In this document: positions 13,632 to 16,839 of the stretch, piece by piece
Layout of the letters: every line of letters begins with the position of its first letter
How positions within the stretch are numbered: position 1 is the stretch's first letter
Origin: Nitrosopumilaceae archaeon
GTDB taxonomy: Archaea; Thermoproteota; Nitrososphaeria; Nitrososphaerales; Nitrosopumilaceae
DNA: 37,459 nt
Assembly: GCA_900620265.3 (NCBI GenBank)
Contig: UYNY03000025.1
Span: forward strand, 1 to 37,459
Reading direction: 5' to 3'
Notes under the pieces: generated by a model
Databases searched by the model: none
What the model was told of the DNA's origin: nothing
Seen by the model: the letters and a program-made list of their open reading frames with translations, nothing else
Position numbers and translations under genes: made by a program

Positions 13632-14150
13632 ATGACACAGGCCAGGCAGCAGGTGGAGCAGGGTCCCACCCCGGTGGTCGTCGTAGGGGACTACATCACG
13701 GGCCTCGGCAGGGGGGTCTTTACGCCCATGCAGGTTCTAAAGCTGGCGTTTTTGAGCCATGGGTACACCCTGGCCATAAGGGAAGAGCCGCTGTTCGTCG
13801 AGGAGATCCAGGCATGGAAATACGGGCCGGTTATACCGGCCCTGTACGAGGCGTTACGCGTACACGGCGGCGCCCCCGTTCAACACCTGTATTCCTGCAA
13901 GACGCCTGTCATCAGCCCGGATCTTGACAAACGACTGGAGGAACTCGGTGAAATGTTCCATCCGGATAGCCTCGCCATAGTCAAAAAGACGGTGGAGTCG
14001 TTTGGGGACTACAAGGCGTTCCAGCTTTCATATATCACCCACATGGAGGGGTCTCCATGGAAGACCGCCTACGACAAGGGCGGCCTCTTTACACCGATTG
14101 AGGACGACGATCTGAAGTCCTATTACGCAAAGCAGCTGGAGGAAAAGTAA
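13632..14150 (+). CDS. Panacea (DUF4065/SocA-like) antitoxin domain protein
   Basis: The 172-residue product carries the Panacea/DUF4065 signature: a helix FTPMQVLKLAFLSHGYTLA (30-48), PLFVEEIQAW and then KYGPVIPALYEAL (63-75). Panacea domains are the common antitoxin half of a diverse set of toxin-antitoxin systems in which one antitoxin fold neutralises many unrelated toxins (established knowledge). The C-terminus is charged. The downstream small membrane protein begins 4 nt after the stop, the expected place for a toxin partner. The TATA box is 25 nt before the ATG. Codon use is more AT-rich than in the core genes, as expected for acquired DNA. Confidence 0.85.
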   Translation: MTQARQQVEQGPTPVVVVGDYITGLGRGVFTPMQVLKLAFLSHGYTLAIREEPLFVEEIQAWKYGPVIPALYEALRVHGGAPVQHLYSCKTPVISPDLDKRLEELGEMFHPDSLAIVKKTVESFGDYKAFQLSYITHMEGSPWKTAYDKGGLFTPIEDDDLKSYYAKQLEEK

Positions 14151-14154
14151 TCCC

Positions 14155-14469
14155 TTGAGTGGCCGGGATTTGCCCAGAGACGATAAGGTAAAGGATAATC
14201 TTGCAAGATTGGGCGAGATTGCCCCGATAGGGAAAGACATTGCAAGGGAAACGGATTTCTCAAAAAAGGAGAATGTATTACTCTATGCTAATTTGGAGCG
14301 GGTGCTTGAGGTTATGAACAAACTACTATCAGACAACGCGAACAAGCGAATTTCGCTGATTCCCAAGGACTGGAAGGAGGGAATTGCGGCCGGTGTCACC
14401 CTGTTGGGTGCCGGGATTGCACTCCATGTCGCAACCAAGTGGATCGATACATGGCTGCCGTTCAAATAA
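14155..14469 (+). CDS. Small membrane protein, candidate toxin partner of the Panacea protein
   Basis: A 104-residue product starting at a TTG four nt after the Panacea stop; GGAGG at 14139-14143 could serve as a ribosome site. Residues 1-70 are charged and helical, with a heptad-like LERVLEVMNKLL; residues 76-92 form one hydrophobic, glycine-rich helix (AAGVTLLGAGIALHVAT) followed by an amphipathic end WIDTWLPFK. I recognise no family. Because many Panacea partners are toxins, including small membrane-active ones, this is a plausible toxin, but that is inference from position and shape only. Confidence 0.6.
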   Translation: MSGRDLPRDDKVKDNLARLGEIAPIGKDIARETDFSKKENVLLYANLERVLEVMNKLLSDNANKRISLIPKDWKEGIAAGVTLLGAGIALHVATKWIDTWLPFK

Positions 14470-14547
14470 ATGTCCATCTTATAAGCCACCTTTGGATGAT
14501 CCGCGGGATCTTTAGGGTCCCGTAAGGATATCGTGGCCGGATCCAAA

Positions 14548-14568
14548 CCGCGGCTCCGCGGACTTTTT
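14548..14568 (+). terminator. Hairpin followed by T tract
   Basis: CCGCGG-CT-CCGCGG (14548-14561) can fold into a tight stem, followed by TTTTT at 14564-14568. It lies 80 nt after the candidate toxin gene and could end the Panacea operon. Archaeal termination depends mainly on the T tract, so the hairpin may be incidental. Confidence 0.4.
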
Positions 14569-14652
14569 GTAATGGCTGGCGGTCCGGACCTTGCGCCCCG
14601 GATGATGCATAGGGGTGGCGCCTGATAGGCTAGGCAAGGCGGCCGGGATGCC

Positions 14653-15126
14653 GCATTTCCCCTGCACAAGGCGTCCTCTACCGTATCCGAGGTCGCGCCG
14701 ATCATCCTGCACCTAAAGCACGTCGCGGTGCCCGGCTCGCTGCTCATAATAGAGGAGCCGGAGGCCCACCTGCATGTGGAAAGCCAGATCGTGATGGCAA
14801 GGTATGTCATGAGAATGATACGCGCTGGACTCAACGTTCTGGTCACCACCCACAGTTCCGTCATGGTGGACGTAATGGGCATGTACATGAAGTCCAGCAT
14901 GGCGTATTCCAAAACCAGGCGATCGATGAAGTTTGCCCCGGACGAGTATATTGAGTTTGACGAGGTGTCGGCCTACTCGTTTAAAAAATCCCCCGGGCCG
15001 GGCCATGATATCAGGAAAATAAAAACAGACACGGTGGACAGGATACCGCAGGCAGGATACGTGTCGGCACTCAGGAAGACCTATGATCGTTGCATGCGGC
15101 TCGAATCGGAATTAGAAGGCCAGTGA
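14653..15126 (+). pseudogene. C-terminal remnant of a SMC/ABC-like AAA ATPase
   Basis: The open frame from 14653 encodes AFPLHKASSTVSEVAPI, an ABC-type signature region, then LLIIEEPEAHLH (Walker B, starting near 14734) and VTTHSSVMVDV (switch histidine). This is the tail of the predicted-ATPase families used in OLD-like and other two-gene defence cassettes. The whole N-terminal half with the Walker A loop is missing: the frame is closed by TAG at 14626, and I see no ATPase-like peptide upstream. The fragment may be expressed from a GTG at 14728 but cannot be a working ATPase. Its stop is one base before the nuclease-like gene. Confidence 0.75.
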
Positions 15127-15127
15127 A

Positions 15128-15599
15128 ATGCTAGGCAAAATCAAAAAATTGCATCCCGATGCGGTGGTGGTTCGTGCCGTGAACAAAAATACAAGCTTTT
15201 GATCAGCTCCAGGCACGTCATATTCAGGGCGAGCTGTTGGATGACAGGTCCTCCAAAATGTGTGACTGTGTGATATTCCTGAATGATCAACGAATCGTCT
15301 TTGTTGAAATGAAACGCAAGAACGTCTCGATAAGAGACGTCGAAAAGCAGTTTCTTAACGCCGGAAAAAGATCGCTGGGTATTGCACGTGATGCCGGAAT
15401 TGACTATGAGATAGCATGCATGCTGCTGCTGACGAGATATCGCACTAACCATGCCCTCAAGAATTACATGCTGGCGGTTCCCAATATGCGCATATCTGGA
15501 AAATACTATGCGATCACGAGGGGCAGGTGCGGCTGCCGTCTTGAGGCACTGTTAAAGAAATGCCCTGCCCGCAGGCGCAGATGGAAGGGCGGCCGCTAG
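15128..15599 (+). pseudogene. Frameshifted PD-(D/E)XK nuclease-like gene
   Basis: An ATG at 15128 starts MLGKIKKLHPDAVVVRAV, but the frame ends in TGA at 15200-15202 just after a T4 run (15197-15200). Dropping one T joins it smoothly to the second frame (FDQLQARHIQGELLDD, then CDCVIFLNDQRIVFVEMKRKN), giving a 156-residue protein. The D...ExK arrangement between CDCVIF and VEMK fits the PD-(D/E)XK nuclease fold. The start is one base after the ATPase stop, so the two once formed an ATPase-nuclease operon. The last dozen residues are arginine-rich and coincide with a jump to GC-rich DNA near 15560, suggesting that the true 3' end was replaced. A TTG at 15237 could still start a 120-residue piece. 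Confidence 0.65.
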
Positions 15600-15604: not shown

Positions 15605-15948
15605 CGGATCGCGTACGGGGTGATGGGGCTCCCCCCGCCCCCCGGCGCATGGTGCCACGGCGTCCACTGCCTGCGTTATACCGTAATTAAGGACGCCCCG
15701 GGGGCGCGGGCCGGATTCGGCTTGGTGACCCTTGGCGGTGCTCAAGTGGACGTGAATTCGTATGATCGGGGCGGTGTTTACCCTGTCCTTATGTGGTATG
15801 GCCACCGTATCATTTCCCGTATATGACATGGCCCAAAAGTTCCAGAATCCTGCCAAATCCTGCGGCAGTGGCCTATTTTGACCGGCAGATGGCGGTTCAA
15901 ATACACGTCATGATAAGGTTATAAAGAGCCTTGTCCGGCACCCTTCTG
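15600..15948. other. Gene-poor stretch, no supported gene
   Basis: About 350 bases with mixed composition. The only long frame (15560-15826, plus) begins inside the nuclease frame, has no TATA box at the right distance and encodes a peptide I cannot relate to anything. The last 30 bases hold the promoter of the next small gene. It is probably debris of former genes. Confidence 0.5.
15919..15925 (+). promoter_or_regulatory. TATA box of a two-gene island operon
   Basis: TTATAAA, centred 27 nt before the ATG at 15949. It supports the reality of the 53-residue gene, which is too short for usual gene finders. Confidence 0.55.
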
Positions 15949-16110
15949 ATGGCATGGCATCCTAGAGTCAGGGGTAACCGCCCAAAGTCGGATGTTCCTA
16001 TGAATCCTCCCGCACCCCCCAAATGGGCCTATTTTCCACCATCTAGGGATAAGATCATACGAGATTTGGATGCGCGTATATATGAGATAAAGAGGATACT
16101 GAAAGAATGA
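15949..16110 (+). CDS. Small protein of 53 aa, unknown, leads a two-gene unit
   Basis: The frame starts MAWHPRVRGNRPK, has a proline-rich middle (NPPAPPKWAYFPPSRDK) and ends with a charged helix (IRDLDARIYEIKRILKE). No family is recognised. Three signs make it a credible gene despite its size: a TATA box at the leaderless distance, an intact frame in a region where other genes are broken, and an ATGA overlap of its stop with the start of the next gene at 16107. Such a small helical protein ahead of a larger helical partner resembles an antitoxin or regulator, but this is only an analogy. Confidence 0.55.
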   Translation: MAWHPRVRGNRPKSDVPMNPPAPPKWAYFPPSRDKIIRDLDARIYEIKRILKE

Positions 16111-16839
16111 GCCTCTTCAAGGACAACGATGAGGATCAAATCCGTAATTCCATACGCTATTTTATGTCACTGGATGCCGCAAAAAAACAGAAGATTGTAT
16201 CGAATCTGGGGAAGCCTGGACGGTGAAGATTACACCAATCTGAGAATTCTTTTCAATATTATATGGTGAGATATTGCTAACTATGACAAAACTTCGATCG
16301 CCGCCAAGCTTGTGTCTCTCGGCATGGATGAGCTGTTCGCCGCGTTACTTGTTGACGAAATGATAAAACAGGTCCCTCCATTCAAATATTATATGAGAGA
16401 AATATCAAAAATGCCTGATGCTGACTTTGAATCAAAGTTTCCACTCGTATTCAAGTATGTGTTTGTTGAGCGCGTTGATCCGGAAAAATTGCCAAAAATA
16501 CTTGATGTTACTCCCAATCTGGTGTCTGTCATGATTTCTGTAACAAGGACTTTTATGAATGATCTTGCTCGTGGTACCGCAACTGAAAAAATGATTGTTG
16601 ATCTGTGCAAAAGCTCTGGACTTTCAGATTCAAAGATTGATGTAATTACCAAAGATCTTATAATTAATTCCGAATTTTGGTACAAGACACTCATGTTTTC
16701 CAACACACAAGATGCCTCTTCGGTATTGGAGGATATAAAAATTCAGAATAATCAGATACTTGATACTTTGACTACGATATCCGACACATTTAAAAAAATC
16801 GTAGAAGGATCTCCAGCGCCTGACAACCCGTACCAATAA
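16107..16839 (+). pseudogene. Helical protein of unknown family, broken by a frameshift and a stop
   Basis: The ATG at 16107 (ATGA overlap with the previous stop) gives MSLFKDNDEDQIRNSIRYFMSL and stops at TGA 16224-16226. Removing one A from the A7 run at 16181-16187 connects it to the next frame, which continues RRLYRIWGSLDGEDYTNLRILFNIIW. That frame meets an in-frame TGA at 16267-16269 and then continues without a break (DIANYDKTSIAAKLVSLGMDEL) to the TAA at 16837-16839. The reconstructed protein is about 240 residues, mostly helical and AT-rich in codon use, and I recognise no domain. A GTG at 16312 could start a 175-residue C-terminal product. Both lesions need checking against reads. Confidence 0.6.

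What the first reader, a model, noticed from the sequence alone, without database searches (positions are those of the whole stretch)
15919..16839. Unknown two-gene island unit: 53-aa leader protein plus a helical protein with two lesions
A TATA box, a 53-residue gene and an ATGA overlap into a longer gene indicate a genuine operon. The second gene becomes one ~240-residue protein if one A is dropped from the A7 run at 16181-16187 and the TGA at 16267-16269 is read through. No family is recognised. Intact relatives could be a new accessory or defence module.
Basis: partly seen in the sequence, partly recalled or inferred. Interest (0 to 1): 0.55.

Follow-up and report, generated by a model that had tools for sequence, protein, structure and literature searches.

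The report
Archaeal COMMD-like double-domain gene pair, broken here
A rare two-gene unit of ammonia-oxidising archaea encodes a small protein and a helical protein whose two halves both look like the helical part of COMMD proteins, which are best known from the membrane-traffic machinery of animal cells; the copy in this window is a broken gene, but intact copies exist in relatives.

Summary
The two-gene unit is real. The 53-aa ORF (15949-16110), the TATA box and the ATGA overlap are as described. Seven relatives carry an intact downstream gene, and the short upstream gene accompanies it. The second gene is broken in this window by a frame change and an in-frame TGA. 'No family recognised' can be improved. 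An AlphaFold2 model of an intact relative is all-helical, and its best solved matches are COMMD proteins of the human Commander complex. The N-terminal half, modelled alone, again finds COMMD chains first. Pfam COMM_HN hits the second half in 4 of 6 members (best 5.4e-4; half alone 1.4e-4, 22.8 bits against a cut-off of 23). So the protein is probably a tandem pair of COMMD-HN-like domains plus a C-terminal helix, without the COMM domain. It is under purifying selection in two genera, occurs sporadically (8 of 250 and 3 of 70 species genomes) in unrelated contexts, and is often broken. Most likely it is a scaffold that assembles with its co-translated small partner; that function is inferred. 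The defence-module idea has no direct support, though a broken ATPase-nuclease pair lies next door.

The parts
15919..15926 (+). TATA-box-like promoter element TTATAAAG, about 29 nt before the ATG (leaderless transcript expected)
   Evidence: similarly placed AT-rich boxes precede the short gene in G375/G400/G435 and G244/G245 (by eye)
15949..16110 (+). short upstream gene, 53 aa, intact in the window; conserved hydrophobic C-terminal segment
   Evidence: relatives' short genes 51-77 aa
16107..16110 (+). ATGA stop/start overlap
   Evidence: seen in the window and in all 6 other genomes of the family whose 5' region is readable
16107..16217 (+). long gene, first segment (profile residues 1-36), frame of ATG16107; this frame then stops at 16224-16226
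16216..16839 (+). long gene, second segment (profile residues 39-241), other frame, interrupted by TGA 16267-16269; ends TAA 16837-16839
16107..16362 (+). region encoding the first HN-like half (model residues 1 to about 90, approximate limits), split here by the frame change and the TGA
   Evidence: on an intact relative
16399..16653 (+). core of the second HN-like half: COMM_HN match, profile 13-101 of 103, sub-threshold in the window (E 0.074)
   Evidence: structural match on the relative
16669..16800 (+). C-terminal long helix (approximate limits), with the conserved F-x-N-x-Q-[DE] and Q-N segments

Best explanation
The unit is a small archaeal operon. Its long protein (238-249 aa when intact) is a tandem pair of COMMD-type HN domains followed by a long C-terminal helix, with no COMM domain. 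Its first gene makes a 51-77 aa partner whose reading frame overlaps the long gene by ATGA in the family of the window, so the two are probably made by coupled translation and assemble as they are made. By analogy with Commander, where HN domains hold peptide linkers of CCDC22 and CCDC93, the most likely mechanism is a scaffold or adaptor: the HN pair grips the small partner (and perhaps a third protein), and the C-terminal helix makes the complex oligomeric. Shown: the operon, its conservation, purifying selection in two genera, and the lesions in this copy. Well supported but not proven: the HN-like fold of both halves. Inferred: binding of the small partner, oligomerisation, and the scaffold role. 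In the window the long gene is a pseudogene or a mis-assembled gene.
For: Structure: full-length model of the PL23a relative, pLDDT 79.8, pTM 0.49. Foldseek ranks 1 and 2 are COMMD chains, and 6 COMMD chains in the top 34 have probability 0.90-1.00 against 0.15 or less for every other row shown. VIA-align Z 9.8, rmsd 2.5, 107 residues (model 90-202 on 8f2r_C 5-119), then 7.6 and 7.1 for two further COMMD entries, then 6.3 for an unrelated chain. N-terminal half alone: pLDDT 86.6, pTM 0.78; the five best VIA rows are all COMMD or COMMD-like (Z 8.9, 7.6, 6.4, 6.3, 5.7), then 4.9. Sequence: COMM_HN in 4 of 6 members, with E 5.4e-4, 0.0033 and 0.0058 in three relatives and 0.065 for a 175-aa stretch of the window copy, always nearly the full profile on the same stretch; second halves alone 1.4e-4, 0.0015, 0.016 and (window) 0.042. 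In 150 genomes scanned with COMM_HN the two best matches are members of this family, and the window gene is the only match in its own genome. Eight reversed or shuffled controls gave no COMM_HN hit and nothing below 0.04. Selection: dN/dS 0.12-0.135 (three pairs) and 0.063, the last with dS 1.66, near saturation. Gene pair: ATGA overlap in the window and in 6 of 6 other genomes of the family with a readable 5' region; short gene ending 24 nt upstream in G435 and a similar non-overlapping arrangement in G375 and G400.
Against: COMM_HN never reaches its curated cut-off (best 22.8 of 23 bits). It hits none of the three G375-group copies (G375 and G435 proteins by hmmscan; all three genomes by scan) nor G017. 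The genome scan also missed the G141 copy, so scores hover at noise level. Foldseek E-values are poor (0.24 at best; 0.30), and the tool warns that helical models can reach Z 13 by common arrangement. The modelled alignments had only 4 rows. Profile searches of PDB sequences found no COMMD. The two halves show little sequence similarity (hhalign E 0.11 over 25 columns, probability 0.5%), and the first halves alone have no COMM_HN hit. The COMM domain that defines the COMMD family is absent. Nothing shows binding. The short genes show purifying selection significantly in 1 of 4 pairs only (p 0.013; the others 0.08-0.22), and their C-terminal segment exceeds shuffles in hydrophobic moment clearly in only 1 of 8.
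Confidence: 0.5

Rival explanations
1. The COMMD resemblance is convergence: an ordinary all-helical tandem-repeat scaffold unrelated to COMMD, with the same operon biology.
For: Sub-threshold sequence scores; weak Foldseek E-values; VIA-align warns about helical bundles; no COMM domain.
Against: Sequence and structure point to the same family over the same residues, and a second, separately modelled half also has COMMD chains as its five best VIA rows; reversed and shuffled controls do not hit COMM_HN.
Confidence: 0.3
2. A mobile defence or toxin-antitoxin-like pair: small first gene as antitoxin or regulator, long second gene as effector.
For: Two overlapping genes, sporadic distribution (8 of 250), different chromosomal contexts, frequent decay, repeated copies in G021, and in the window a neighbouring broken ATPase-nuclease pair and a SocA/Panacea protein.
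Against: No PADLOC hit for 5 of 5 family proteins, and no antitoxin, nuclease or other enzyme family above cut-off; intact copies are not beside recognised defence genes, except for an ATPase and helicase some kilobases away in G244 (by inspection); no viral-contig, phage or plasmid copy.
Confidence: 0.15
3. In this genome it is only a dead relic with no present function, apart from possible residual expression of the 53-aa ORF. This can be true together with the best explanation, which concerns the intact copies.
For: Frame change plus TGA in the window; broken neighbours; G173, G021 and G108 copies are broken too.
Against: Does not explain the intact, selected copies elsewhere; lesions could be assembly errors.
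Confidence: 0.8

Closest known systems
COMMD proteins, HN domain (Pfam COMM_HN PF21672; human Commander/CCC complex, PDB 8f2r, 8p0w, 8esd, 4oe9)
   Same: Best structural matches for both halves; best Pfam match for the second half of three relatives.
   Different: Two HN-like units in tandem instead of one; no COMM domain; a long C-terminal helix; a short partner gene; archaeal; sequence score just under the curated cut-off.
Bacterial COMMD-like protein MBK5214510 of a Flavobacteriaceae bacterium (PDB 9q6a, octameric; only the entry title seen)
   Same: Third-best VIA row for the N-terminal half (Z 6.4, 96 residues); shows that prokaryotic COMMD-like proteins exist.
   Different: 214 residues; not among the 50 rows shown for the full-length model. 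No paper describing it was found in the library.
Chlamydial CT584/Cpn0803 (reported as the clearest structural matches of Commd9 in PMC6089597; passages read)
   Same: Prokaryotic protein with a helical N-terminal domain resembling HN.
   Different: Has a COMM-like alpha/beta C-terminal domain; not compared here.

Membership tests
COMMD protein family | HN domain at sequence level (PF21672 at or above its curated cut-off) | tested here: inconclusive
   Best 22.8 bits against 23; 4 of 6 members match below cut-off.
COMMD protein family | HN fold | tested here: inconclusive
   COMMD chains lead Foldseek and VIA lists for the whole protein and for the N-terminal half, at Z 9.8 and 8.9; helical-bundle caution applies.
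COMMD protein family | C-terminal COMM domain (alpha/beta, PF07258) | tested here: not met
   The model has no strands; no PF07258 hit in hmmscan of the proteins; no match over the cut-off anywhere in 11 of 11 carrier genomes.
COMMD protein family | Strictly conserved Trp in the COMM-domain C-terminal helix | not tested
   No COMM domain to test; the Trp near residue 191 of several archaeal copies lies after the second HN-like half.
Toxin-antitoxin module | Member of a known toxin or antitoxin family | tested here: not met
   No hit above cut-off for the long gene in Pfam or NCBIfam, nor a significant one in PHROGs; no hit for the short gene in Pfam (window copy), PHROGs or NCBIfam (window and G244 copies).
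Toxin-antitoxin module | Toxicity of one gene neutralised by the other | not testable with these tools
   -
Known anti-phage defence system | Match to a PADLOC model | tested here: not met
   0 of 5 family proteins; the library is limited to systems described by 2023.

The most novel reading that the evidence does not exclude
Nitrososphaeria carry true homologues of the COMMD HN domain in a COMM-less, tandem form that is encoded with its own small peptide partner. The HN module and its habit of holding peptide partners would then predate eukaryotes, against the published statement that COMMD proteins have no sequence homologues in Archaea or Bacteria.
Probability: 0.35. Interest if true: 0.8.

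Novelty: new variant of a known kind. Interest (0 to 1): 0.55.

Why it matters
Healy et al. [quoted passage not shown] A tandem-HN protein in ammonia-oxidising archaea, with a genetically linked small partner, would give a concrete prokaryotic relative of one half of COMMD and a two-component system in which to test what HN domains do without the COMM ring. It also gives names and coordinates of intact copies for expression.

Tried and rejected

Other weak profile hits (CofD-like ORF, VIT-type membrane protein, histidine kinase, helicase; identified by inspection): looked at and dropped as chance. The G288 hit was dropped for that reason, leaving 3 of 70 in the G375 family; not every weak hit was looked at.

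DUF2713, RE_MjaI, sRNA_TF_AbmR and PHROG hits: single-member, E above 0.01, dropped.

Viral origin: four viral-contig scans without a relative; phage and plasmid tblastn without a match; the BFVD fold search gave nothing convincing.

Recoding of the TGA at 16267: not pursued; the position is not a stop in the intact relatives, and G021 has its TGA elsewhere.

A PxxR motif (reported for CCDC22) occurs in the window's short protein (PRVR) but not consistently in the others; not used.

The first genome-contig scan with the window protein alone found no relative; the second, with alignment A5, found three.

Papers: searches found no paper on archaeal COMMD (listings only, apart from the passages); no preprints are held, so PDB 9q6a may have a paper that I could not see.

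Full report
OBSERVATION. The window is contig 25 of an unnamed 2.0-Mb, 113-contig archaeal genome. The region 16.0-17.0 kb has 39% G+C in a genome segment that is otherwise mostly above 60%. The frame change is not at the A7 run: profiles made from relatives match the ATG16107 frame over 16107-16217 (residues 1-36) and the other frame from 16213/16216 (residues 39-241). So the gene has a frame change near 16210-16217 and a stop at 16267.

RELATIVES. A single-protein search over 250 species genomes of the same family gave, among its best hits, uninterrupted frames of 41%, 33% and 28% identity. A profile search over the same 250 found 8 carriers at E 1e-4 or better: four with an intact long gene (G141, G244, G245, G017) and four broken (the window, G173, G021, G108) (frames). 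In the family of G375, 3 of 70 genomes carry an intact copy (a fourth hit is a histidine-kinase-like ORF and was dropped). Sampled searches of 400 genomes of the class and 398 of the phylum gave strong matches only in these two families; the remaining hits were weak (E 6.6e-5 to 0.01), and those that I read were unrelated ORFs. No relative was seen in viral contigs, phages or plasmids.

THE PAIR. In all family genomes with a readable 5' region (window, G141, G244, G245, G017, G173, G021) a short frame ends in the ATGA overlap; the G173 short frame is itself interrupted (by eye), and the G245 start is probably GTG (by eye). In G435 the short gene (75 aa) ends 24 nt before the long one, and G375 and G400 have a similar arrangement. 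The short proteins are 51-77 aa, variable in the N-terminal part, with a conserved hydrophobic C-terminal segment. Long gene: dN/dS 0.12-0.135 in three pairs and 0.063 in one (dS 1.66, near saturation). Short gene: about 0.36-0.51, with p 0.013 in one pair and 0.08-0.22 in three.

CONTEXT. Apart from the short gene no neighbour is shared: argS in G244 and G245; methionine-synthase-like genes in the G375 group; a transposase on one side and RNA polymerase genes some 1.1 kb beyond the other in G141; an isopentenyl-phosphate-kinase-like gene downstream in G017 (names by inspection). In the window the unit follows a C-terminal piece of an AAA ATPase (PADLOC PD-T4-4_A 2.2e-16) and a frame-shifted nuclease-like gene. 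It looks like a solitary cassette that is gained and lost, not a fixed part of a defence cluster.

WHAT THE LONG PROTEIN IS. AlphaFold2 on the PL23a protein with a 4-row alignment gives an all-helical model (pLDDT 79.8, pTM 0.49), with two five-helix units of similar lengths, about 100 residues apart, and a long last helix (the repeat reading is mine). Foldseek against the PDB ranks COMMD chains first and second; six COMMD chains have probabilities of 0.90-1.00, while no other row shown exceeds 0.15. VIA-align gives Z 9.8 (rmsd 2.5, 107 residues) for residues 90-202 on a COMMD HN domain; further COMMD entries at 7.6 and 7.1; the first unrelated at 6.3. The N-terminal 100 residues, modelled separately (pLDDT 86.6, pTM 0.78), have COMMD or COMMD-like proteins as the five best VIA rows (Z 8.9 to 5.7, then 4.9), including a bacterial COMMD-like protein (9q6a); Foldseek puts two COMMD chains first (probability 0.97 and 0.69), then an unrelated chain at 0.54. 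Pfam agrees for the second half only: COMM_HN in 4 of 6 members, best 5.4e-4, half alone 1.4e-4 and 22.8 bits against 23. Scanning 150 genomes with COMM_HN, the two best matches are two members of this family and the window gene is the sole match in its genome; none passes the cut-off, and the scan missed the G141 copy. Eight reversed or shuffled controls gave none. Against: no COMMD in PDB sequence searches; no COMM_HN in G017 or G375 proteins; almost no sequence similarity between halves; the tools' caution on helical folds. I put an HN-like fold at about 0.7 and true homology at about 0.5.

MECHANISM. Healy et al. 2023 report that HN domains bind linker segments of CCDC22 and CCDC93 (passages). 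By analogy I propose that the tandem HN protein holds its co-translated small partner, with the last helix for self-association. Binding and function are inference only.

KNOWN OR NEW. It cannot be filed as a COMMD protein: the COMM domain is missing. It is best called a COMMD-HN-like, COMM-less archaeal variant. The literature held here states no archaeal or bacterial sequence homologues; structural relatives in Chlamydia and a bacterial PDB entry are known, so the novelty is the archaeal tandem form and its paired short gene.

Noticed in passing
window 14401-15126 and 15130-15599: Remnants of an ATPase-nuclease pair: a C-terminal AAA_15/AAA_21 piece (PADLOC PD-T4-4_A 2.2e-16) followed by a frame-shifted gene with a weak HSDR_N / PDC-M29B match.
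   Followed up: partly
window 13632-14150: Intact SocA/Panacea-domain protein (Pfam E 3.2e-15) before the broken ATPase; a Panacea gene without an identified toxin partner.
   Followed up: no
L016 9351-9719 (G173): The broken G173 copy runs into a long minisatellite that reads ELLK over and over on the coding strand, apparently an expansion of the C-terminal helix.
   Followed up: partly
L045 1-400, L046 5990-6390, L047 7539-7959 (G021): At least three near-identical (89-98%) copies of the short gene plus the start of the long gene, at contig ends in a repeat-rich genome; two copies share an in-frame TGA at another position than the window's.
   Followed up: partly
L050 851-1144, L044 3568-3885, L043 10629-10922: A 97-105 aa ORF upstream of the pair in all three G375-group genomes, possibly a third gene of the unit there.
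   Followed up: no
PDB 9q6a, matched by the N-terminal half of L065 3106-3825: A solved octameric COMMD-like protein from a Flavobacteriaceae bacterium: bacterial COMMD-like proteins exist, although the 2023 paper held says no sequence homologues were identified.
   Followed up: partly
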